Source of the DNA: Heterotrichella gracilis
Lineage: Eukaryota > Sar > Xanthophyceae > Tribonematales > Xanthonemataceae
DNA: 64,000 nucleotides
Assembly (NCBI GenBank): GCA_032358255.1
Contig: JAULBX010009991.1
Span: forward strand, 186,001-250,000
Direction of reading: 5' to 3'
Position numbers and translations under genes: made by a program. This document shows, piece after piece, positions 40,281-60,500 of this stretch. Positions within the stretch are counted from its first letter, which is position 1. Every line of letters begins with the position of its first letter. Under the pieces are notes generated by a model. That model worked only from the letters and a program-made list of their open reading frames with translations, had not been told where the DNA came from and searched no databases.

Positions 40281-41270
40281 GTTGGCAGTACGTCCGAGGC
40301 AAAGCAGTCAGGCACCTATCAAGTACCCACAATAAAAGTGGCTAACAGGTAGTTATAATCTGGGTTACTGTTCAAAGCAACGAGTGCAAAGCCATCGCGC
40401 GACAGAAAGCGATGGGTCGGTACATGCATGCAAGCATTGAAGTGCTGGGCGGGGAGGGACGGATACAAACGCACACCCTATGTTTCGTATGCTCTGCGTG
40501 TACTGTTACTGTACTGTTACACAAGTGAGAAAATAGCTGCCTTTGAGAATAACATACGTTTGCGGGTTTTAAACAGCTGTTGATCAAGAGTTGGCGGGAC
40601 CCTGGCAATCTGTAACCCTACAGGGTTTCCAAGGGTTGAACTTCAGTGATAAGGGTGATCATTGTTGAGTTCCCAGCAGTCTGGCACTCAAGGAGGCTGT
40701 TCCAGCTTCCACACATACGGGCATACATGTCGTTCAACTGAATCAAGTTGCGGTGGAAAATATAGGCTACACGTGTCATCTGCACAATGGGGAGGGGAGG
40801 GGGGGGGAGTATCATACTGGTCTACTGTACACCATAATGGTCTACTGTACAGAAAATCCCAAATACCGCAAGTTTTCAACCATGCCCACTGCCGGCAACT
40901 CGATAACCCTACAATGGCCCCTTACGCGCCCCATGGCGCCGCTGTAGCCTGCTGAACCCCAATCCATACCCCAATACAACCCCCCTCTCACGGTGAGTCC
41001 AAGAATACCAAGATATTGATAGGTCCAAATATAACACTCTATTACTCTTGGTGGGTCACACCACCTCAGACTGGCCCTTGTCCACCCTCCAGAACCTCAT
41101 TCAAAACGTGTACATCGCCACAGGCCGTCCCTGGGACTGAATCAGCCGAAAACCCTACAATAGCATGACGGTTCCCGTGGCGCCGCCATAGCTTGCTGCA
41201 CCCTAATCCCAACTGCCCAGCCCAGACCACTATGACACCCACTATAGGGGTATCCCTATAACACGGTGAG
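40281..41270. other. Intergenic with an echo of the next gene's last exon
   Basis: No gene is seen. At 41044-41156 lies a copy of the last exon of the following minus-strand gene (see its echo entry). Confidence 0.5.
41040..41160 (-). repeat. Echo of the terminal DUF6816-like exon
   Basis: gactggcccttgtccaccct and acaggccgtccctgggactg (41071-41140) repeat the exon text at 41285-41353 (gactgccccttgtccgccct, acaggccgtccctgggactg). The copy lies beyond the stop codon. Confidence 0.85.
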
Positions 41271-44200
41271 TCACACCACTTCTGACTGCCCCTTGTCCGC
41301 CCTCCAGAACGCCATCCGGTAAGTGTACATCACCACAGGCCGTCCCTGGGACTGGATCAGCTTGCCAGCATCATCGAAGGAAGTTAGGAAATCTGACACC
41401 ACCTGCGTGGCGACCACCTCCGGCCCGCCAGCTGCGTCCGCCGCGGTTCGCCACCGGTACTTGGTGAAGCATTGGGAGGCTTTCACCTGGGGGCGGGGGA
41501 GTGGGGGGTGGGTGCGGGAGCGGGGGTGGAGGACGGGGGGGGGGGGGGAATTGAGGCGGCCTATCCCTAGGATTGAGGCCGAGGGGGGAGGGGGAGCAAG
41601 TGAGCAGCCTTGAGATGCGGATAGGAGGGTGGGTGTGGGGGGAAGGAGGGAAGGGGCGAGGGTTCCCCATATGGCTGTTGAGGGTGCAGGTGTTCGGGCA
41701 TTGTTGAATACCCTAGGGCCTACCTTAGGGCTATCCCGCCTTGGATCATCAAACAGCTGCTCAAAAAACTCCGATGTGTCCAGCCGGTTGTCAGCCACTG
41801 GATCGGCGGATCGTCGGGTGACACGCGTCATGATGGTCATCCCACCTGGTGTATAGGACAGGTACAGTGGATCAAAACCTCAACCCCAAGAATCCCAGGA
41901 AGGGTATACGCATTACCTCCAACTGCAATTGCGTAAGGCATTCCACCAAACCGAGCATGACACCAATCCCCCTACATTGTACGCGAGGTGAGGAGGGGCG
42001 CAAGCACATGAATAAACTATACGGATACGGGGGGGGCAGTATTGCGGCGCATGTGCAGGGGTGCTACCTTTAACATCACCCCAGATGAGATCCACCAGCT
42101 ACACATAAAAAACCTTAGGGTTGACTTTTCAAACCAACGCCACATGCACATTCACACCAATAAGGACGTTGCTTGGTCTATTTTCTTTTGTATCCCCCCC
42201 CCCCGACGCCTACCTGGCAGCTTGAGCTGGAGCGTGTTAGGGTCATTAGGGTTCCACTTGATGGCCCCGCTGGCCTGGTAGCCTGGCCCCATGTATGCCT
42301 CAACCAGGCTGCTGGTGTTGAACAGCCTGTCGGTGATGACCTGCAGCAGGCACATTAGGGTTTGGGATTTAGGGTTTAGGGTTTTTGTCTAGGGTTAAAC
42401 AGCCTGTCGGTGATGACCTGCAACAGGCATACTAGGGTCTAGGGTCTAGCGTTTCAGGTTCAGGTATCGGGCTGACTGTGGACGTGCAAATGGTGCTCTT
42501 CTCTCTGCGCCCCAAGCTTTGAACTAGAAAACCCTAAGCAAAGACTAGGCATGCGGGGGGCCATGCAGTACTTGCAATCAATCGTCATCCATGGTGTATG
42601 CCCCTTGACCCAGAATGTGTAATGCAGCAATGGTGGAGTGTCAAGCTCGGTCCCTACCTGGCCCTCCCCGTTGCGTATGAACGCCACCTTGTAGCGGATG
42701 GGCTTGTTGAGGTCGTCCCGCCGTGCCCGCTCAACAACCTGCAGGCACCAGGGGGTGGTAACAATATACAATTTATGACGCCGGAGGAAAACCCTCCACA
42801 ACCTGTGGGCACCACGGGATACAAACCTCCATGATCAGGTAGGGACCCTAATGTCATAAACCCTAACCCTAATCAAGGCCCATGGGGCTCGTGGCCATCC
42901 CACCACGCCGGCTCCACAACCTAAGGGCACCACAGGGTGAACAACCTGTACTTTGCCCCAGAAAACCCTACACGGTTCGGGAGAGAACCCCCTTTGTGTA
43001 AAACGACATGTATGCCCCATGCGACCGATGGTATGGCCACCGATTAAATGGCCGCAAACCCCTAACAGCACCATCAAACCCTTCCAGCATCCACCTGAAT
43101 CTCTGGACCACCTCCTGACCCATGGCCCGGGCAGGTCGACCTTGATCAGCTCTGACTCAACCCTAAAACCCTAAACCTAAGAAAAGTACACCCGCTATGA
43201 ACTGCATTGCACCGTTCACCCACCTGCATGTCTGGCACCACCTCTTGCCCCATGGGCGGCTCCACCTTTATCAGCTCCGGCTCAACCCTAACACCCTAAA
43301 TCTAAGAAAACACACCAGCCTTGAACTGCATTGCAGAAATCGTTGCGCCTTCTGGGGCTGCACAGTGCAAGCTGGGTTACAAGGGACTATTTTTACCACG
43401 AACCGTTCACCCACCTGCATGTCTGGCACGACCCCTTGCCCCATGGGCAGCTCCACCTTGATCAGCTCCGATTCAACCTCCCACACGCCCAGGAACAAGG
43501 GGGGGAAGAACAGGTCAGCGGGCCCGCCTCCCATGGCCTCCCAGGCTCGGTCCACCATGGGGGAGAGTGTGCTGGCCTGGGCGAGGTGGGGAAGCGTTTA
43601 GGGTTCAGGGTTTCAAGGAGGGTTTGCATGCGAGGGTGCTGGCCTGGGAAGGCACAAAAATGGTGAAAATGGAGGGTTTAGGGTTTCTTGGGTTTCAGGC
43701 TCGGTCCACCATGGAGGAGAGGGTGCTGGCCTGGACCGATGTGGGGAAGGGTTTAGGGTTTAGGGTTTTAGCAATTAGAGGTTCAAGGAGGGTTTTTGAG
43801 TCTGAAGGCTGTTGCCTGGGGGCTGCACGGGGGTGGACATGGAGGGCAACAGCAACAACAAAGGTCAGACGCTACCATGGCCACCTACATGTCTAGACAA
43901 TGGGTGAAGATGTATGCACCCTTGCAGCTGTTCTTTCTGGCGAGGTGTGTTGCAGTTGCGAGCGCTTTTGGAGGCTGGGCATGAGGTTGAAGATAGCCAG
44001 TGCATGAAGAGGGGTTGCATGGGTTTGCAGAGTGTGCAAGATGTGTAAAATGCACTATGCTGGCGGCAAGTATACGACAGGCTAGCCCTGGCGAGTGTTT
44101 GTACTGGCGCGCGTGCATAGGGTTTAGGGTTCAGGTTTAGGGGTGTTTACTGGCGCCTGTGTCTGACCTGGCAGGTGTGTTGCTCAGCATGGCGTCTTAT

Positions 44201-44509
44201 TGCATAACCACTAATGGGGTTATGGTAGTGGGAAATGACAATAGCCCATACCGCGTAACATCACCATGCTACCCAGCGCACCTGGGCAGGCGTGGGCGTG
44301 AGCATGGCTGGCAGCAGCCCTGTGCTGCTGACCAATAGTATGGAGCGCCTGCTCCACGGTGCACCAGTGGTTGAAGCCTCTGGCTTATGGGACGAATTGC
44401 AACAGCGTGGCGGGGTGGTTCGGGCAGTACCCTGGTGTAACCTGGGTCGGAGCAAGGCAGCTGCGAGGTTGGCATGGTGCCACGATGACCCTACTGCGCT
44501 GGTGGCCAT
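41271..44509 (-). CDS. Chloroplast DUF6816-like protein, probably thylakoid lumen
   Basis: Six exons keep frame: 44509-44282, 43576-43415, 42738-42658, 42340-42214, 41845-41724 and 41486-41271; 311 aa. The mature part matches what I know of a cyanobacterial/chloroplast family now called DUF6816: FFPPLFLGVWEVESELIKVE, VVERARRDDLNKPIRYKVAF, VITDRLFNTSSLVEAYMGPG, AIKWNPNDPNTLQLKLPGG, TRVTRRSADP, LDTSEFFEQLFD, SQCFTKYRW. The family's biochemical role is not known to me. The first exon is a bipartite transit peptide: a Ser/Thr/Ala/Arg-rich part, then SRRSILLVSSTGLLPAML and a TPAQA-S site, which suggests twin-arginine import into the thylakoid lumen. Introns contain at least seven exon-edge echoes, many capped by TTTAGGG repeats. 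Confidence 0.85.
42341..42450 (-). repeat. Telomere-like tract joined to an exon-edge echo
   Basis: After the acceptor of the fourth exon come TTAGGG-type repeats (42356-42396), then a copy of the exon start (aacagcctgtcggtgatgac at 42397-42416, then ctgcaacaggca) and another short CTAGGG run. Confidence 0.9.
42739..42965 (-). repeat. Echoes of the third exon's acceptor region
   Basis: caacctgcaggcaccagggg at 42734 recurs as caacctgtgggcaccacggg (42798) and caacctaagggcaccacagg (42917). Each is preceded or followed by aaaaccct or ccctaa runs. Confidence 0.7.
43085..43414 (-). repeat. Two echoes of the second exon's 3' edge, each ending in CCCTAAA
   Basis: The exon edge (cacccacctgcatgtctggc, then the cttgatcagctccgattcaa segment, 43408-43471) is repeated at 43217-43286 and, without its left part, at 43105-43156. 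In both copies homology stops at ctcaaccct and continues as (a)accctaaa. So on the coding strand each copy starts with TTTAGGG and ends with an intact donor region. Confidence 0.9.
43576..43770 (-). repeat. Two echoes of the second exon's 5' edge with TTTAGGG runs
   Basis: ggctcggtccaccatgg...gagagtgtgctggcctgg (43544-43580) recurs at 43699-43735 with few changes. A shorter copy (gagggtgctggcctgg) lies at 43632-43647. Between and after them are gggtttagggttcagggttt (43597), ggagggtttagggtttc (43671) and gggtttagggtttagggttt (43749). Confidence 0.9.
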
Positions 44510-45341: not shown

Positions 45342-47627
45342 TCACCCCAAAGCGGCCATCCTGCGTCCTGCCTCGGTCGGCATGCGCTTCAGAGCCTCAT
45401 AGAGGTCCGGGTAGACAATCTCGGCCACTTGGTTTGTCTCGGTTCCCTCGCAGTAGACCCTGGCCTGGCCGTGCTCGAAGCTCGTCAAGAGCACTGGGAT
45501 TGGCGGAGCGCCAGGCTGCTCTTGCGCGATCAGGTAGTTGACCGCTACATACTGACCCAGGGCCTGCGCCCTATTCTTTGAGGTGTTTCTCAAATATGCT
45601 CTCGACTTCTTGGCCTCAACCATATACTGGATCTGCAAGAACATAAACCATCATATAAGTCAAAAAATAAAAAAAGTCGGTGCTAATCTGGCTGTACCGC
45701 TGAAGTCAGTCAGTCATATTTTTTTTCCATATACATATCAGAAGTATAAAAGTACACTCGAGCAGTGGTGTCACCACATAGTCAGAATGCACTGTATTCC
45801 CTGTGCGTTTCCATGGGAGCAAACACACCTGGTGCACTGAATCGCATGGGTTCTCCTTGGCAGCCGCGGCGTGTCCCGCTCTTACCCCAGTGATGTCCGT
45901 GCAGGTTGCTTTGAGTTGAACGTGCTGGTCTGAAAACTTCTTCAAGGTCACCTCGCTGGTTGAGATGATTTGCTTCTTTGTCACGTCCACAGCCTTGACC
46001 CCAGGCACTGCAAGATGCTGGTCAAGAATTTGTATGCAGCTGGTCATATGCGTACTGTCCTCCTCGCTCAGTCCAAATGCTGAACGCATCTTTGGTGGGC
46101 TGTGCAAGATCCTCCTTCTCGTCTAGCAGTGTGAACCCCAACCTCTCGGCTCCGATTACGGTGTGATCCAAGTTGCAGCTTGAACCTCCAATGCTAACGG
46201 TGTCAGCTGGAGGTGGAAGGGGAGGGGTGCCAGCTGGAGGTGGAAGGGGAGGGGTGCCTGCAAAATAGGAGTAGAGACTGAGGCTTTGAAGACAGTGTGT
46301 GCTGTGCACGCACTGCCCTTCATGCTGACACCAGGTGCCAAGTGACATGTGCACACTGACTGCCAATGCTATGGATGAAGTGACCAGCAGGCAGCAGCAT
46401 ACCACGGCTATGAGACAAGAGTGTGCTCACTGGGTACATCACGTTCACGGCGTGGCCCCAATACGTTCTTGGATATTCACAGGGAGCACTGACAGGGCAG
46501 GCTTGCCAACCTAGCACACCTTGGTGGTGACCCTCACTAGGGGTTGCTACCGCCACGTGTGCTGCCGTGAGCACTGCCATGCACACTGCTTCTCACCTGC
46601 AGGGCCCTCCACGTACAACAGTGCGCCCCTTCGCACCAGGCTCTGTGATGCGGCGGTTTCGTCCACCTCCACCCAACACTGAAGGTCAGCAGCTGCAAGC
46701 CAAGCATACACTTTGCGGCCACCGAACCTTTCCTGAAGTGCTTGAAGGATATTGTCCGTTTCTGGCAGGACTATTGCATTGTTGAACCTCTTGACTTCAT
46801 CTGGTGTCGCTGGCATGCCAGCTGCAAATTCACGTACCAAAACCACCCGTTCATGACCATCCATGACCACCAACGGCACAGATGGTTCCTTCAGCCAATA
46901 CTGAGAAACTATTTGTGTATCCAACTCACGAGCTAGGTTTCTGTGCAGCGGCGCAAGGTTGTTCACCTGCAGTGGACTGGGAAGGTCTGGCTGGCAAGGC
47001 AGTGTGGTATCCAAAGGAGGAGGCGCTGAAGACGATCACACCAGTGCCAGGAATACGTAGTGAACGCTACAGTAGTTGCCGATAATACCCTTTGCAATGA
47101 CTGCAGGCAAGAAGCAAGCTTTATCGATACCCAGCCCATAGCCATGCTGCCAGCCAGGGGGGAAAAGGCGGGATGGAACGACGAGGAAGGTTGGTGGCGC
47201 CCATGCCGCAAACACTTTCCCCTCTTCACGCCCCACCAAACACTATCTGCGGTAGTTTATTCTAAAGGGTATGTGCTACCACTTGAAACGCGCTTTGTCA
47301 GAGCGGGGTTGCCTCCAGTTGGGTTGACATGCCGCGAAATGCCCTGTTAGAAAACATTCAAACGTTTCGATCCCCGACGCCACCCATCCATACCCACCAA
47401 TACGACCCACTTTTGCGCACAGCTTAATCAGTCAAGCGCCACACCCTATACTGCAGCGCTTTCAAACGGTGCCCAGGCAACACGGTGAATGCTACTCACC
47501 AGCAGCAGCATATTTTGGACCCCTTGGTGTTGGTCACCCCTTTCCTGTATCCCAGCCAGCGTCTTGCCATCAAGCCCGCGCCCACCAGCAATGGACCCAG
47601 CACTTAGCCCCACCCTGCCCACAACTG
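45342..47627 (-). pseudogene. Unknown protein with a PD-(D/E)xK-like C-terminus, frame disrupted
   Basis: Exons that keep phase: 47627-47500 (incomplete start), 46966-46597, 46257-45886 and 45632-45342. The second exon reads well (LARELDTQIVSQYWLKEPS, ERVVLVREFAAGMPATPDEV, AWLAAADLQCWVEVDE). The third starts with two copies of the 9-residue repeat TPPLPPPAG. Its first half (HTVIGAERLGFTLLDEKEDL) and second half (VPGVKAVDVTKKQIISTSEV) are in different frames, and no GT-AG pair restores the frame, so a one-base indel, an unseen intron or a sequence error is present. The last exon has IQYMVEAKKS with an E-A-K and a preceding Asp (CTDITG), then PIPVLLTSF, which resembles PD-(D/E)xK nuclease cores such as those in mobile-element-derived effectors. 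That link is weak. The gene has a decayed relative at 48.6-49.6 kb. Confidence 0.5.
46204..46257 (-). repeat. 27-bp coding tandem repeat, two copies
   Basis: cagctggaggtggaaggggagg plus ggtgc occurs at 46204-46230 and 46231-46257. It encodes the TPPLPPPAG repeat. Confidence 0.9.
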
Positions 47628-48845: not shown

Positions 48846-48961
48846 CTAAAACGCACGCAGAGGCAGGTGTGTTAGGTGAAAAGTGCAAACAGTAATTGTG
48901 CTACACCTTCCTAGCTAACAGTTTGCACGGTTTTGTTCGCTGCAACTTGCATGTGTACACT

Positions 48962-49600
48962 GACTGCGAATGCTATGGATGAAGCGACCAGCAGGAAGCA
49001 GCATACCACTGCAAAGATACAAGAACGTGCTCACTGAGTAGAGCACGTTCACGGGCGTGGCCCCAATACGGTTTTTGGTTATTCACAGGGAGTACCGACA
49101 GGGCAGGCTTGCCATCCCAGCAAACCTTAGCGGTGGCCCTCACTAAAGGTGGCTACCGCCATGTGTGGTGCCGTGAGCACTGCAATGCACACTTGGTCCC
49201 ACCTGGAGGGTTCTGCACCATCAGCACCGCGCCTCTTCGCACCAGGCTCTATGTTGCAGGGTTCTCGTCCACCTTCACCCACGCAACCGCATCCTCAAAC
49301 CAAACAAAAAAGTTGCGGCCACCGAACTCTTTTTGAAGTTCTAGAAAGGTATTATGCGTTTGTGGCAGGATGTTGCTCTTTTCAACCTCTTGATGTCATC
49401 AGCTGTCACGACCACGCCCTGCGCAACTTCACCATACCAAACCAAATTCATGACCAACAACGGCACAAGTGGTTCCTTCAACCAACAGCGACAAACCATC
49501 TGTATATCCAACTCACAAAGCTGGGTTTCTGGGCACCGGCAAAGTTGTTCAAGTACGGTGGCCAGGTTTGATATTCCAAGGAGGTTGTGTTGAAGACGAC
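48962..49600 (-). pseudogene. Decayed duplicate of the second exon of the 45-47 kb gene
   Basis: The block 48962-49600 matches 46370-46995 in the same orientation, including intron, splice site and exon. In the copy the exon is interrupted by stops and frame changes: it begins like the intact one (CELDIQMV, WLKEPLVPLLVM) and then loses frame. It is a pseudogene fragment. Confidence 0.8.
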
Positions 49601-49723
49601 CAACCAGTGCCTAGAGTACGTAGTGGACGCTGTAGCAGTAGTTGCCGAGGGTACCCTTTTGCAGTGACTGCAGTCAACAAGTACCTTTCGTGAACCTTGG
49701 TGTGGAGAGCAACAGGGCTGTCT

Positions 49724-50627: not shown

Positions 50628-52928
50628 CTAGGGCCCAGTGCGTGGCTGGCAGCTGAGTACCAGCATGACACCTCGTCATGGCTGCACATACTGAGCCCCC
50701 AAGAGCAGCAGGAGGTTGTCGATGCGATGCACAGCGTCTGCAGGCGAAACATGCAGTGCGAGGTGCGTTGGGTTATGTTTGATAGCAAATAAGCCTAGAC
50801 AGCTGCTACAGTTATGTGCAGTAATGTGCATCTGGACATGCCATCCGTCCTGGCAGCTGGTGACCCAACTTGTGTTGGATTCGTGTGCATTATGTGAGCA
50901 GCCATGACAAAATTTCTGGGGCAATGCACATCACGATGCCATGGCTTCAAGATCCATAGCGCCTCTTAGACCATGATTTCCATTAGTGCAGTGATGCTAA
51001 TATCAAAGATTGGAAGTGTTGCTAATGCACACCGCTGTGTTCTATTTCAGGACGTCACCCGACAAGACTTTGCCTTGCCTTTCCTTGGTTTAGTGCTGGA
51101 ACAAATGCGCCACGATTTGGTCCATGGGAGGGGATTTGCTCTCATGCGGGGGCTGCCACTGCATTTGCTATCCCCAAGAGAGGCAGCCATTGCGTTCTGG
51201 GGATTGGGGACCCACCTGGGGACAGCTGTTTCTCAAAACAAGCAAGGCCACCTGCTAGGCCATGTGAGGGACTTAGGGAAAGACCCTAATGACCCCTCCA
51301 ATAGGGTGTATGAGACCAATGCTGCCCAGCCATACCACACAGACTCAGCTGACGTTGTGGGTACGTAGCTGTTCAATCATCTGTCGTGTACATCCTGGTT
51401 TGTTTGCGTAAATGTCCCATTGCACCAAATGGGGCAAGGCGGTTTTAATGCCTCAGCCTACTGCAATTACCATGCGCACCATCATAACCTGGAAACCATC
51501 CCAGTCACCGCCCCCGTTCCTCCTTTGAGTATCCCTTTTTCACTGGAATTGTATGCCTGATGCCAGTGCAACAGGGTCCCGGGGCATCGGTTGCTGGTGC
51601 TCCTCCACCTCCCTGCACAATGCAATGCTGGAAACAAACCCCGATCTAAAATCCAATGCTTCAACCTATCGCACACACTAACTTTTCTCTGAACACATTA
51701 TCAGCCCTTGTGATTACTCGTGACAAGTCTGAATGTCCCTTTTGTGCAGGACTCCTATGCCTGACGCCAGCTCAGCAGGGGGGCATCAGCAGCTGGTGCT
51801 CTTCCACCTCCCTGCACAACGCCATGCTGGAGACAGACCCCGATCTGGTCCAAGTCCTGGCAGATCCATTCTACGTGGATCGCAAGGGGGAGATACCAGC
51901 TGGGAAGCTGCCCTACTACCAAATGCCGGTGTTCAATTACTACGAGGTACGTGGACTATAGTGGACTAGTCAGGGTGCATGATGATCATCATTGACGACA
52001 TGCCATCATAATCTTTCAATCATAACCTTTCAATCATAATTAAAGCCATACTAATAGTAAAGTAAGTAATAGTTTACAGGTGCATGATGATCATCAACGG
52101 CAATCTTTGTTGGGTGCAAAAGCTACATCATGCAGTTGAAAACTTGCCACTTGTCTTGTGGCCAGTAGCAACTGTTGCAGCCAGCGCCAATCTGGCATGG
52201 CACACGGGACCACACGAGGCTGAAGAGGGTGGCCATCTCCCACAACCATGCACGTTGCAGGATCATGTTTGTAACGATGATAATAAAGCATGCTTGAAAG
52301 ACCATGTTCGTAGTAATAATAATAATGCATATTGCAGGGCCAACTGAGCACCATCTACGCGCGTGGCTTCATCGCGGCCGCCCAGCGCCACCCTGGCGTG
52401 CCCCCGCTCACCCCCCGCCAGCTGGCAGCACTAGACAGGGTGGACCTGCTGGCCAACAGCCATGAACTGCGCCTGGACTGGAGGCTCCAGCCCGGGGACG
52501 TGCAGTGGCTCCACAACCACCAGATCCTGCACGCACGCACGGCGTTTGTGGACTCACAGGTGGGTGCCAACAGCTTAGAGTTGGAGGAATGGAAAGGTGC
52601 TTATAAATCTAGGTTGCGAGTCCAATAAACCGACCATTGCCAATGCCATACGTACCCAATTAAATAACCATTTCATAAGTATATCCATGTTCGCCTTCAG
52701 ATTTTGTGTTAAAATGGCATAAAAATATGCCATTTTCCACGATTCGCCCAGGTGCCTCATCAGCGCCGACACCTCCTGCGCCTGTGGTTGGCCCCGCCCA
52801 ATGGCAGACCCCTGCCACCTGTGTTTGCTGAGCGCTACGGGAGCACACAAGTGGGGCAGCGGGGGGGGATTGTGTGCCCCGGCGCACACCCACACGTCCC
52901 CCTAGAGCCGCTGGCAGTGCTGAAATGA
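50628..52928 (+). CDS. TauD/TfdA-type 2-oxoglutarate dioxygenase (start not found)
   Basis: Five exons keep frame: 50628-50762, 51051-51360, 51750-51946, 52338-52559 and 52752-52928; 346 residues from the first acceptor. Family signs: LVHGRGFALMRGLPLHLLSP, AIAFWGLGTHLGTAVSQN, the iron-binding H-x-D in AAQPYHTDSADVVGLL, SSWCSSTSLHNAML, the distal His in LHNHQILHARTAF, and the 2-oxoglutarate Arg in QRRHLLRLWLA. These enzymes hydroxylate or cleave small molecules such as sulfonates or amino-acid derivatives; the substrate cannot be read from sequence. The first exon shown starts at an acceptor (CCCTCAG|CTAGGG), so a 5' exon with the start codon must lie upstream; a candidate ATG reading at 50058 ends in the wrong phase. 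Confidence 0.85.
51549..51665 (+). repeat. Echo of the third TauD exon in the preceding intron
   Basis: The exon start (tatgcctgacgccagctcag ... ctggtgctcttccacctccctgcacaacgcc...cccgatct, 51757-51847) is repeated at 51550-51650 with about 15% changes (tatgcctgatgccagtgcaa ... cccgatct). The copy lies about 207 bp upstream of the exon. Confidence 0.92.
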
Positions 52929-54108: not shown

Positions 54109-55848
54109 CTAGAGCTGCACCCAAAGCGTGTAGAGCACCACCCACAGGTACAGGCAGGCCAGGCCGCCCATCACACAGAGCCACACACTCCACAGCAGGG
54201 GCATGAAGGGAGGGGTGCCGGTGGAGTGGCGGGTGAGGGGGGCGTGGTGGGCGAGGAAGGCCTCCCTGGCGTGCCGCTCGATGACGTACAGCAGGATGGT
54301 TGGTAGGAGGAAGTGGGTGGCTGTCAGGCAGGTGACCAGCACTGGCTCGCATGTGGTGCACTGGTGGGGGTTGCCTGCAGGGGAAGTACACATAAAATTC
54401 TTAAAATGATTCATGCATATTAAGTAAAACAGATAGATCTCTAAGTTAAATTCATTATCTATTAGCAGGAAGTGGGTGGCTGCCAGGCAGGTGACCAGCA
54501 CCGGCTCGCATGTGGTGCACTCGTGGGGGTTGCCTGCAGAAATGATACCCATAAAACCACTGTTAATTGGCGTTTTGATTATAATTTGGGTGCGGTTTTG
54601 GGTGGTAGACCCTTCCATGGGGAGGGAAAGGGACGGACATTTACATGTTGCCACTCAGCGCCATCCCTAGGCTTACGTTGGGTCATACTGCAATACCCTG
54701 GTCAAACCGCAAAAGCAGGCACGTCGTTCGGGTTTAGCATTTCACCTTGGTCATACTGCATACCTAATTACAACGAAAATAAATGGGCATGTGATTTCAT
54801 CTGGTAGGGTTGAAGGTTTGGGGTTTAGGGTTTTACCTTGGTCATACTGGAAGAGCAGCGAGGCGACCTTGTGGAGCCATGCCGACAGCCTGGCAATGTC
54901 GGGGATCTCGTGGTGGGGTGGCGAGAAGTTGGCCTCGCTGGCGTGAAGCTGGTACCACTTGCTGCACATGCCCGACCCCGGCAGGGCAATGAACACAAAC
55001 AGGCAGGCGGTGGAGATGCCCTGGAGCACAACGTGGTGGCGCAGCAGCATCTGGAACCCTAGGGTTGACACCACGCCCGACAGGCACAGGTGGCGTATGA
55101 CTGACCGGAAGATGTTTTTGTTGCTGACCGGGAAGCCGCGCAGCCACCAGCAGGCGATGTTGAGCGGCCGCCCTGCCCGCAGGAGGGCGTTTGCCAGGGT
55201 CCTGTTTCGGACATAGGAGGGCATCCCCTTGCTGAAAAAGTACAAGGGGACTAGTCTGGAGGCTAGGCCGGAGCTGAAGACCAGAAGTACATCGAGAGGA
55301 GCCGCCTGCCTGCAGGGTGAAGCGAGCAAGCTTGTGAATATAGGCTGCTTAGTGCTATAATACAAGCTACTTGAGCAAGGTGACATTGCCGAGTTCAACG
55401 CCACATTCAAGGACCGTTGCTGCACCCCAGGGTATTGGGTGGGCATCAAGGTGCTGATATTGGGTTGTATTTCTTCCCCAAGTGTGTGTTGACAACCCTC
55501 ACAACAGTGGGCAGTACAATTTATAGCGACTTGAGCAAAGTTATATATGAGCTACTCAATAGGAGACACACATAGTGCACAATTGAACAGGCGCCAAGCA
55601 GGATAGGGCGTGTGCAGTGCGAGAGAAGTGTTCAACAAGAAAAGGAAGACGGGTGGCAACAATTAAGTGGTCAGCCCAACTTGCCTGTCGATAGCTTTCT
55701 TGGTGAATATCGGCAAGAAGAGCAGGATGACAAGGGTGTGCCATAATACGTCAATCCTGGCGCGACTAGTGGCCCATTCTTTCAGAAACCGCTGTTCATG
55801 CTCCGGGTCCTTGAACCGCAGCGTCAGTGGGTGTAGTACTGGCGCCAT
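54109..55848 (-). CDS. Multi-spanning membrane protein, unknown family
   Basis: Three exons keep frame: 55848-55685, 55309-54837 and 54374-54109; 300 aa. Several hydrophobic segments are visible: VLWHTLVILLFLPIF, LDVLLVFSSGLASRLVPLYF, LNIACWWLRGF, a stretch around GISTACLFVFIALPG, VLVTCLTATHFLLPTILLYV, and near the end LLWSVWLCVMGGLACLYLWV. So about six membrane spans are likely. A basic region (SYVRNRTLANALLRAG) and a C-x2-C (CTTCEPV) lie between spans. I do not recognise the family. The first intron most likely uses a GC donor (GACAG|GCAAGT); a GT donor 4 nt downstream paired with a shifted acceptor would give the same protein. The gene is divergent from SEC6. Confidence 0.65.
54375..54550 (-). 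repeat. Echo of the last exon of the membrane-protein gene
   Basis: aggaagtgggtggctgtcag ... gttgcctgcag (54309-54380, exon edge plus acceptor) recurs at 54467-54538 (aggaagtgggtggctgccag ... gttgcctgcag) with four or five changes. Confidence 0.92.
54680..54845 (-). repeat. Echoes of the second exon's donor edge, with a telomere-like run
   Basis: The exon edge accttggtcatactgg (54835-54850) is preceded by gtttggggtttagggtttt. Copies occur at 54744-54759 (accttggtcatactgc) and, partial, at 54682-54694 (ggtcatactgcaa). Confidence 0.8.
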
Positions 55849-57554: not shown

Positions 57555-60500
57555 CTATAGCTGCAACTGCAACGCCCAGCTGCAGCCCTCAACTGAACCT
57601 GCCCCCTAAACTCAAACCTTAAACCCTAAACCCTCCTTGGTCCAGTCTGCTAAGGAGGCCGCGCAGGACCTGCAGCGGGTGAAGGACCAAATGGACCTGC
57701 CCCTTAACCAAAACCCTAAAACCCTAAAACCTAAAACCTAAAACCTCCTTGCCCCAGGCTGCAGAGGAGGCCGCACAGAACCTGCAGCTCTCAACTGCAC
57801 CTGCCCCGAATTAGAACCCTAAACCCTAACCCTAACCCGAAAACCTTCGTTGCCCCAGGCCGCAGAGGAGGCCGCTCAGAACCTGCAGCGGGTGAAGGAC
57901 CGCACCCACAGCCGCAGCAGCAGCCGCGCAGAGATGCCCCCACCCAGCCCCACCCCCGCCCCCAAGCCCGCCTTGGCCAAGCCCCGCTCCATGAAGCAGG
58001 CGCCGGTGGCGGAGCGCCAAACCCCCCTGGCAGCCCATCGCAGCAGGTGGGTTCATGGCGTGGGGTTTGGGGTGAAGGGTTTAGGGTTTGTGTTCCAGGA
58101 GGAGCCTTGCACTGCTTGTGAGGGTCACCTCCCAGTCAAGGGTGCCCTATTTCTACCCCGGGGCGCCTGCGAATGACCTTGCACCCCGTGTCCCCTGCCT
58201 GGGGCCAGTTCCCTTCCTGTTAAACAAACATAATGTACTATCATCGTAATATGTACACTAAATGCTTCATTTGGTTAGGTCCATGTCGGCGGACACCACT
58301 CCCAAGGACAACTTCCAGACCATCAAGAACGAGCTGGCTCGCCCGGCAACCCATGCGCGGTCTGCGACCATGGACTTGGGCAGCGGCGCGGCAGCTGCTA
58401 TCCCCAGGCGAGGGGGGTCGGGGGCTCAGACCCAGGAGATGCGCGACGTGAACCTGGACCAGGTACCCTAAACCCTAAATCCGTAACCCCAAAGGGAATA
58501 GGTTTCGCGGCTCAAGACCAAGAAAAGGCGGAGACGCGAACCTGGACAGGAACCCTAAACCCTAAGCAGGTCACTTACTGCAGCTGGACAGGAACCCTAA
58601 ACCCTAAGCAGGTCACTTACTGCACCTGGACGCATGGCACGCGCCTGCGCCGTCGTGTGTGGGGGGTGTAGGTTTCTTGGTGGTGGAATGGCGCAGCCTC
58701 TGTGCACGCCTGCCATTGGGGTTGGGGTGGGGAGGGGGGGGTGGCACGCCCTTGGTTGTGCCTCTGTGGTGTCCAGCCATGTGATGGGGGGTGCATGTTT
58801 TTGAGGCACCACCGCCTGCCCTTGATGGTGGAGGGGGTGCATGGCTCATGGGGGCGCTGCCATCAACCACCACCGTCAAACAGCTCCCAGCAGCAGGTAC
58901 CCCCCCAACCCACCCACCCATCCTCCATTGCACACCACGCAACCCTCACCCCACCCACATACCCACCTCACCCCCACCCCACACACCTTTCCTCCATCGC
59001 CCCCACAACGCACTCCCACCCCACCCACCCGCACCCTACCCACACGCACCCCCACCCCACCCAACCAGGTGATCCACAACTTCCAGCGGCTTCAGAGCCG
59101 CAGCGGCAGCGCCTCGATGGCCAAGGCGCCCCGCTCCGCCCACTCCCGCACCTCCTCGGTCAGCTCCAACCCAGACTCGGTGGGGCACTCTGAGAGCACG
59201 GGCTACGAGGAGCAGGTGGGGAAGGTACAGGGTTTAGGGTTTAGGGTTTAGGAAATCCCAGTACAGCTCCTACCCAGATCCAGTGTGGCACTCGAAAGAG
59301 CGTGGAATGGTACGAGGGCAGTGGCGCACTCCACTCCCGCACCTCCTCGGTCAGCTCCAACCCAGACTCGGTGGGGCACTCTGAGAGCACGGGCTATGAG
59401 GAGCAGCTGAGGGATGGAGATGGGGATAGTGAGGGTGGTAGATATGGTGGTGAGGATGGTGGCGAGAGTAGTGATGATGGGAATGGAGATGAGGAGTGGC
59501 GAGCCCGAACGATGAAAGCGAATATTTCACATACCCCACCCACCCAAATCTCTATTGTCACATAAACCCCCACCATCAAACTAATCCCCCATCGCCACCT
59601 AAATTCCCACCGCCACCTAAACCCCCGCCCTGCCGCCCCACAGCGCCCCACCACCACCACCACCACCGCCGCCAGCTCCTCCCACAGCGAGGGCCCCTCC
59701 TCCCCGGCCAGCACCCGATACGACCCCGCGCACCGCTACGAGTTCGAGGAGGTGATCCAGACCGAAGGGGAGGAAATTATAGTTATCCCCGACAAGGTGG
59801 CGTGGTCCACGCTGCGCAACTTCATCGGGGTCGCGCAGGAGGACCCCACGCTGCTTGTGCATGCGCTGCGCGCGCTGCAGCGGCTGCAGGAGGAGCAGGA
59901 GGAGGAGGAGGCAAAGGCGGCGCGGGACGCAGGTAATGAGGGCATTCACCACTTCCAATTATTGGATGGTAGAAATGATTGTGATTTTAATGATGTTGGA
60001 GGATGGGGTTTCGTAAATGTCTTTGATGATAATGATGGGGTTTCCCAGCAGCGTCTCCAGCCCACAGCAAGGCCATGCTTTTATCCACCCCCCACGCACC
60101 CCCCACCCCCACCGCAGACCGCGGCCGGTCCCGCAAAACCCCCCGCCAAGAGGAGCTGGACGTGCGGCGCAAGTGCGAGGACAATATCTCAAACTGCGTG
60201 CGCCTGCAGTTTGCCAACCTGCTGCAAAAGTGCTCGGTGCTGGCGGCGGATGAGACCGACCAGGCGCAAACAGACCAGCGCTTGCAGGAGATTCTGGATG
60301 TAAGCAAACCCTAAACCCTAAACCAGCTGTGCACGGACCAGCGCCTGCAGGAGATACTGGATGTAACAGCTGCACGGTACCGACATGGTAGGGTTGAAAA
60401 GGGCTTTTGAAAGTGTTCAAAGAGGTTCTATGCATTGTAAAGGGTCACTGCCAATGTAAGAAGACTAAAGATAGTGATAACGAGATCTTGGATGTAAGCA

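What the first reader, a model, noticed from the sequence alone, without database searches (positions are those of the whole stretch)
41040..44282. Exon echoes capped by telomere-like TTTAGGG repeats
In the DUF6816-like gene at least seven echoes occur, and in the best cases (43105-43156, 43217-43286, 42397-42427) homology to the exon stops exactly where TTTAGGG/CCCTAAA units begin. The same pairing is seen in SEC6 (57.6-57.85, 58.46-58.6, 59.23 and 60.3 kb) and in the 54-kb gene. A repeat unit of the form [telomere-like run + exon border] suggests that telomerase-type addition at a break, or copying of telomeric repeats as filler, takes part in making the echoes.
Basis: partly seen in the sequence, partly recalled or inferred. 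Interest (0 to 1): 0.93.

Follow-up and report, generated by a model that had tools for sequence, protein, structure and literature searches.

The report
Telomere repeats joining exon-border duplications
In this green alga, short copies of exon edges lie inside the neighbouring introns and are often joined to the original by a few telomere repeats, as if broken genes had been patched with chromosome-end sequence.

Summary
The window is from a 68.5-Mb genome, probably a green alga; TTTAGGG caps at least two contigs. I tested 264 kb: the window plus 200 kb of contig C2. Local duplications are direct (93 direct, 4 inverted); 56 of 76 pairs touch an exon border. Telomeric tracts are far above chance, avoid called exons and cluster near exon borders. 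They lie between two copies of one sequence in 39 of 111 cases, against 9.3% of 3,330 exon-distance-matched controls. Copies abutting the tract on both sides: 9/111 against 29/6,660, 18.6-fold. In the pooled sample telomeric words are the most enriched in spacers; on C2 alone the signal is weaker. So the association survives correction. Best reading: staggered-break repair that duplicates 20-96 bp and leaves telomeric filler. Main rival: older telomere-like elements promote the duplications.

The parts
41277..41486 (-). last coding exon of the DUF6816 gene as called (stop codon by eye at 41271)
   Evidence: exon caller; protein homology
41050..41146 (-). echo of 41265-41361 (end of last exon with stop) in the 3' flank, 86% over 97 nt
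42214..42340 (-). DUF6816 exon whose 5' border is echoed
42355..42396 (+). telomere-like tract between exon head and its echo; G strand on +, C strand in the gene sense
   Evidence: copies 42321-42352 and 42398-42429, 97%, gaps 2 and 1 nt
42398..42429 (-). echo of exon head with acceptor
42658..42738 (-). DUF6816 exon; its acceptor border is echoed at 42794-42818 and 42912-42936 (25 nt each)
43415..43576 (-). DUF6816 exon; tail echoed at 43211-43287 and 43088-43162, head echoed at 43696-43734
43159..43177 (-). telomere-like tract ending the echo 43088-43158; inside a 129-bp tandem unit
43211..43287 (-). echo of exon tail plus donor (43402-43478), 92%
43596..43625 (+). telomere-like tract next to the acceptor; a tract stands at the matching place of the second copy, 43748-43768
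43748..43768 (+). telomere-like tract in the second copy
54821..54833 (+). telomere-like tract 3 nt from the donor of called exon 54837-55309
57815..57835 (-). telomere-like tract of a multi-copy array before SEC6 exon 57859-58046
58593..58607 (-). tract between two 24-bp copies (58566-58589, 58608-58631), 96%, gaps 3 and 0 nt; another tract stands outside
59229..59252 (+). tract 3 nt after the exon tail plus donor copy 59140-59225; second copy 59331-59417, 95%
60306..60324 (-). tract with gaps of 2 and 8 nt between two 34-bp copies (60270-60303, 60333-60366), 91%; no tract outside: cleanest case in the window

Best explanation
These are scars of double-strand-break repair near exon borders. 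A break with staggered ends (two nicks 20-96 nt apart on opposite strands) leaves both ends carrying the same stretch X as overhang. Both overhangs are filled in and the ends are joined, so X appears twice. Before joining, one end receives a short stretch of telomeric DNA, by telomerase or by capture of telomeric fragments, giving X-[TTTAGGG]n-X. If X spans an exon border, the spare copy becomes an exon echo in the intron. Later duplications copy X plus tract as one unit. Shown: the X-tract-X anatomy, direct orientation, enrichment on the inner side, copy sizes, exon-border location. Inferred: the breaks, the overhangs, the fill-in and the source of the telomeric DNA.
For: Tracts between direct copies: 39 of 111 against 9.3% of 3,330 distance-matched controls, inverted 0 of 111; 40 of 114 against 5.9% of 2,280 ORF-matched controls. 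It holds in both halves: score 36 or more in 11 of 32 window tracts and 20 of 82 C2 tracts, pooled shifted control 6.5%. Copies within 12 nt of the tract on both sides: 9/111 against 29/6,660; those without co-duplication 5/111 against 11/6,660. Telomeric coverage on the spacer side of copy ends peaks at 8.6% (10-20 nt), against 0.85% overall and about 1% in the first 20 nt outside. Tract in the spacer 14 of 66, in equal-length outer flanks 4 and 6 of 66; more similar copies carry it more often (5/17, 6/23, 3/26). Spacer words: AAACCCT 31 against 5.3 expected and 9 in outer flanks; spacers telomere-like against shuffles 22 of 64, outer flanks 20 of 127. Copy length median 47, range 21-96, n = 31. 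TTTAGGG caps contigs C70 and C140; TERT and Ku domains are present. In mammals ITS are inserted at breaks, sometimes with duplication (PMC2246262, passages), and CST-Pol alpha fills 3' overhangs to give small tandem duplications (PMC8355091, abstract and passages).
Against: No telomerase polarity (14:16:1). By the tract is co-duplicated in 12 of 31 cases (20 of 31 by the looser test); these need a second round or a pre-existing tract. 65% of tracts have no echo; the echo rate is the same for exact and degraded tracts (33-37%), and short target-site duplications are not enriched instead. Tracts without echo also cluster at borders, which break repair alone does not explain. Single-unit (T)AGGGTTT shows the association in one phase only. 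On C2 alone the spacer signal is weaker: tract in spacer 7 of 47, outer flanks 2 and 5; AAACCCT ranks second, 15 against 3.4 expected and 7.4 in outer flanks. Outer coverage is not flat: 0.1-3.2% in bins out to 200 nt, highest at 150-200. CST Pfam models found nothing here, nor in any control genome, so CST is untested. No empty allele or paralog was found at four loci.
Confidence: 0.48

Rival explanations
1. Tract first. Telomere-like elements, phase-specific AAACCCT(A) like the plant telo-box, already sit at intron edges as binding sites, splicing aids or fragile G-rich spots. They attract breaks, fork stalling or template switching, which duplicates the neighbouring exon border.
For: Tracts without echoes also cluster at borders (0.97 per kb within 20 nt against about 0.2 beyond 200 nt). 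Within 20 nt of acceptors 12 of 12 tracts are in C-strand sense. Phase-specific heptamer: AGGGTTT 278 against GGTTTAG 96 in the sample. Isolated AGGGTTT/TAGGGTT lie between duplicates in 20.3% of 148 against 7.6% of controls, other phases 3.7% of 54 against 5.3%. Co-duplicated cases are 6.4-fold enriched.
Against: In 19 of 31 duplicated cases the tract is not repeated at the matching place outside the copies. Enrichment mainly on the inner side is not expected if tracts merely lie nearby. The longer isolated word TAGGGTTT alone shows only 18.9% of 37 against 12.8%. At acceptors the sense bias can be a filter, since TTTAG would be a cryptic acceptor (inference).
Confidence: 0.3
2. The junction sequence grew later: a short AAACCCT-like microhomology at an ordinary tandem-duplication junction expanded by slippage into a telomere-like tract.
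For: The exon junction at 43.1-43.3 kb shares GGTT/AACC with the unit (read by eye). Single-unit motifs also show the association.
Against: Other 7-nt repeats of equal composition do not form tracts (mean 0.26 against 55 runs of 12 nt or more). Tracts are at least as frequent in the most similar, presumably youngest, pairs.
Confidence: 0.1
3. Mere co-location: tracts and echoes both favour intron edges and meet by chance; nothing joins them.
For: Both do cluster at exon borders.
Against: Controls matched for exon distance and side: 9.3% against 35%; bootstrap maximum 25 against 39 observed in 20,000 draws; both-side abutment 18.6-fold.
Confidence: 0.06
4. A mobile or introner-like element with telomere-like ends.
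For: Insert flanked by direct repeats.
Against: The flanking repeats vary in length (21-96). The words most enriched in spacers are telomeric (poly-C as well on C2). Of four loci searched in the own genome, one gave 10 places matching one C-rich stretch and 1 short match, one gave 1 short match, and two gave only themselves.
Confidence: 0.03

Closest known systems
Short interstitial telomeric sequences (ITS) inserted at repaired double-strand breaks in primates and rodents (PMC2246262, passages read)
   Same: Short runs of the chromosome-end unit inside the genome, inserted with flank changes that include target-site duplication.
   Different: There duplication is a minority outcome (6 of 130 rodent, 4 of 25 primate loci) and telomerase is inferred from in-register microhomology. 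Here 35% of tracts lie between duplicates (21-96 bp at score 36 or more), tracts cluster at exon borders, and in-register evidence is missing.
Small tandem duplications from paired nicks or overhang fill-in (CST-Pol alpha, PMC8355091, abstract and passages; the plant case of Schiml 2016 is known to me from that paper's reference list and by recall, its own text was not held)
   Same: Direct copies of tens of bp, attributed to fill-in and end joining.
   Different: Here telomeric DNA stands between the copies; the passages I read report no telomeric insert.
[quoted passage not shown]
   Same: Duplicated segment crosses an exon-intron boundary.
   Different: Here the echo lies inside a longer intron and no new intron is shown.
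Plant telo-box AAACCCTA (PMC10167121, search listing; motif detail recalled)
   Same: Same phase of the telomeric unit is over-represented as single copies.
   Different: Telo-boxes are described in promoters; here the motif is enriched near intron edges and tied to duplications.

Membership tests
ITS inserted at repaired breaks | internal run of the organism's own telomeric unit | tested here: met
   TTTAGGG caps contigs C70 and C140 (first places listed only); 55 runs of 12 nt or more in 264 kb
ITS inserted at repaired breaks | empty orthologous site in a relative | not testable with these tools
   no relative held for G000; searches of four loci in the own genome gave no empty copy
ITS inserted at repaired breaks | break-site nucleotides in register with the insert (telomerase priming) | tested here: inconclusive
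   polarity neutral 14:16:1; in-register test not run as a count, junctions too few and blurred by divergence
Fill-in small tandem duplication | direct, local, tens of bp | tested here: met
   93 direct, 4 inverted; median copy 47 bp, n = 31
Fill-in small tandem duplication | dependence on CST, Pol alpha and end joining | not testable with these tools
   Ku found; CST Pfam models rang nowhere, controls included
Introner or transposable element | shared element sequence and constant-length target-site duplication | tested here: not met
   copy length 21-96; most enriched spacer words telomeric
Intron gain by tandem duplication | new intron whose ends come from the two copies | tested here: inconclusive
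   23 of 31 rows have a called intron; in 2 of them (window 59229, L021 2298) the caller took the echo for an exon, in the others I saw no echo filling the far end of the intron
Plant telo-box element | phase-specific AAACCCTA | tested here: met
Plant telo-box element | function in transcription through TRB-type binding | not testable with these tools
   needs binding and expression data

The most novel reading that the evidence does not exclude
A eukaryote whose telomere machinery routinely mends breaks at exon-intron borders, leaving a telomeric tag and a second copy of the exon edge, so that telomere maintenance is a main writer of intron sequence and length. The genome-wide number of two-unit matches (5,629 overlapping matches to the 14-mer, reversed control 5) would then be a fossil record of such events.
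Probability: 0.3. Interest if true: 0.9.

Novelty: new variant of a known kind. Interest (0 to 1): 0.76.

Why it matters
If repair with telomeric filler is the cause, each X-tract-X locus is a record of a break, its overhang length and its repair. That would make both intron growth and the use of telomere factors at internal breaks testable in one unicellular alga. If instead telomere-like motifs provoke duplications, they would be a sequence-defined cause of intron instability. No title or abstract start in my search listings mentions this pairing at exon borders (open-licence library only, most listed papers not opened).

Tried and rejected
Gene finders: a first hidden Markov model chained the whole window into one gene and a second was still poor. 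Both were dropped for an exon caller (codon score plus splice matrices taken over; 289 exons). It reproduces the DUF6816 exons but misses weak exons and takes some echoes for exons.

Intron gain as the cause: no support. Unequal crossing-over between flanking tracts: a tract-like score on both outer sides in 2 of 31 cases. Short target-site duplications: not enriched. Telomerase polarity: neutral. Paralogs or second haplotype as empty sites: none at four loci. CST genes: Pfam models found nothing and no control rang. Rfam on the window: nothing at gathering scores.

Dropped rows: 1 of 115 tracts lacked flank; 3 of 114 lay in called exons and were left out. Tracts in one array are not independent; the 31 duplicated cases form about 20-25 separate places by my own grouping.
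Full report
WHAT WAS CHECKED. The window is C101:186001-250000 of a 68.5-Mb genome in 903 contigs. The DUF6816 protein that I spliced by hand has its best match in Myrmecia bisecta (63%), followed among named hits by Chlorella, Micractinium and Coccomyxa relatives, so the organism is probably a trebouxiophycean green alga (inference). TTTAGGG runs cap contigs C70 and C140 in the part of the list shown, and a telomerase RNA-binding domain is encoded on C626.

THE OBSERVATION. Eight echoes of exon borders are seen in the DUF6816 region, three of them only 23-25 nt long. The same holds in SEC6 and at 54.8 kb. Two of the best DUF6816 cases are copies of one 129-bp tandem unit, so they are not independent.

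TELOMERIC TRACTS ARE NOT CHANCE. Runs of at least 12 nt: 55, against a mean of 0.26 and a maximum of 1 for 19 heptamer classes of equal composition. Genome-wide the two-unit 14-mer has 5,629 matches and its reversed control 5. Only 3 of 114 tracts lie in called exons, where 25% of random positions do. Density is 3.1-4.2 per kb in three of the four bins within 20 nt of exon borders (0.38 in the fourth, 0-10 nt before acceptors) and 0.1-0.4 per kb beyond 200 nt. Within 20 nt of acceptors all 12 tracts are in C-strand sense; at donors 9 are G and 8 are C. The G strand contains TTTAG, a possible cryptic acceptor, so a splicing filter can explain the acceptor bias (inference).

LOCAL DUPLICATIONS. 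Self-comparison within 4 kb gives 93 direct and 4 inverted pairs at 40 bits or more. Of 76 pairs with gap up to 400, 56 have a copy crossing a called exon border; per copy the rate is 41%, and a single random segment does so in 16%. Detection favours exon copies because one copy is conserved, so part of this excess is expected.

TRACTS AND DUPLICATIONS BELONG TOGETHER. Three control sets agree. Shifted positions: 40 of 114 tracts (35.1%) lie between direct copies, against 7.8% of 1,140. ORF-matched positions: 5.9% of 2,280. Matched for exon distance and side: 39 of 111 against 9.3% of 3,330, bootstrap mean 10.4 and maximum 25 in 20,000 draws. Inverted copies: 0 of 111. Sorted by anatomy: tract only between the copies 19 of 111 against 337 of 6,660 (3.4-fold); tract also repeated outside 12 of 111 against 112 of 6,660 (6.4-fold); copies within 12 nt of the tract on both sides 9 of 111 against 29 of 6,660 (18.6-fold). 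A single abutting side means less, because it also arises when the tract lies inside the duplicated unit: gap 0 on one side is 26% for tracts and 24% for controls. The clean cases are L027:1248-1266 (74 bp, 96%), L027:9660-9682 (50 bp, 92%), L023:2652-2670 (27 bp, 93%), L024:4077-4085 (42 bp, 88%) and window 60306-60324 (34 bp, 91%). Telomeric coverage is raised on the inner side of the copies, about 1% in the first 20 nt outside, and uneven further out (0.1-3.2%). The most enriched 7-mer in spacers is AAACCCT (31, expected 5.3, outer 9). By region it ranks first in the window and second on C2, where poly-C ranks first. On C2 alone 7 of 47 spacers hold a tract, outer flanks 2 and 5, while 20 of 82 C2 tracts lie between copies at score 36.

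WHAT SPEAKS AGAINST A SIMPLE TELOMERASE STORY. A run primed by telomerase should abut the copy on its 5' side; it does so in 14 cases, the reverse in 16, equal in 1. About 65% of tracts have no echo, and the echo rate does not depend on how exact the tract is. Tracts without echo still favour borders, though less than those with echo (0.97 against 1.49 per kb within 20 nt). There is a phase bias: 45 of 55 runs of 12 nt or more end inside TTT, and isolated AGGGTTT/TAGGGTT units, but not other phases, lie between duplicates more than controls (20.3% of 148 against 7.6%; other phases 3.7% of 54 against 5.3%; the longer TAGGGTTT alone 18.9% of 37 against 12.8%). The Arabidopsis telomerase RNA template is given as CTAAACCCT (PMC12133305, passage), which would end products at TTTAG, not TTT (inference); the template of this alga is unknown.

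MECHANISM. I favour staggered-break repair with fill-in and telomeric filler (0.48), because it most directly gives X-tract-X with the tract inside, copies of overhang size (median 47, 21-96) and direct orientation. Mammalian ITS insertion at breaks shows the same elements, with duplication in 6 of 130 rodent and 4 of 25 primate loci (PMC2246262, passages). CST-Pol alpha links telomere fill-in to small tandem duplications (PMC8355091, abstract and passages). The rival that telomere-like elements come first and provoke duplication (0.30) explains co-duplicated cases and phase-specific single units better. Only relatives or strains can decide the order of events; none is held here, and the own genome gave no empty copy at four loci.

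LIMITS. One contig stretch and one window were sampled. The exon caller was trained on the same sequence. Tracts within an array are not independent, and controls share the sample. The literature searched is an open-licence library only, and most listed papers were not opened.

Noticed in passing
window 46346-47114 and 48950-49681: A direct repeat of 777 aligned nt at 76% identity 2.6 kb apart, with smaller related copies between 48321 and 48599; much larger than the echoes.
   Followed up: no
window 59140-59417: Between two 95% copies of an exon tail lies what looks by eye like a third, strongly degraded copy (sequence); the outer copy is the younger-looking one, which suggests gene conversion or renewed copying.
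   Followed up: no
window 43614-43695, 51648-51729, 54381-54462: Three spacers between direct copies are each exactly 82 nt long; chance not tested.
   Followed up: no
264-kb sample: Telomere-like runs end preferentially inside ...AGGGTTT on the G strand, and AGGGTTT heptamers exceed other phases.
   Followed up: partly
L009-L028: On C2 the most enriched 7-mer in spacers is CCCCCCC/GGGGGGG (11 against 1.4 expected), ahead of the telomeric word.
   Followed up: no
G000:C173:89224-89497: A dense array of four-unit telomeric matches far from the contig start.
   Followed up: no
window 41050-41146: The end of the last coding exon with its stop codon is echoed in the 3' flank, so echoes are not confined to introns.
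   Followed up: partly
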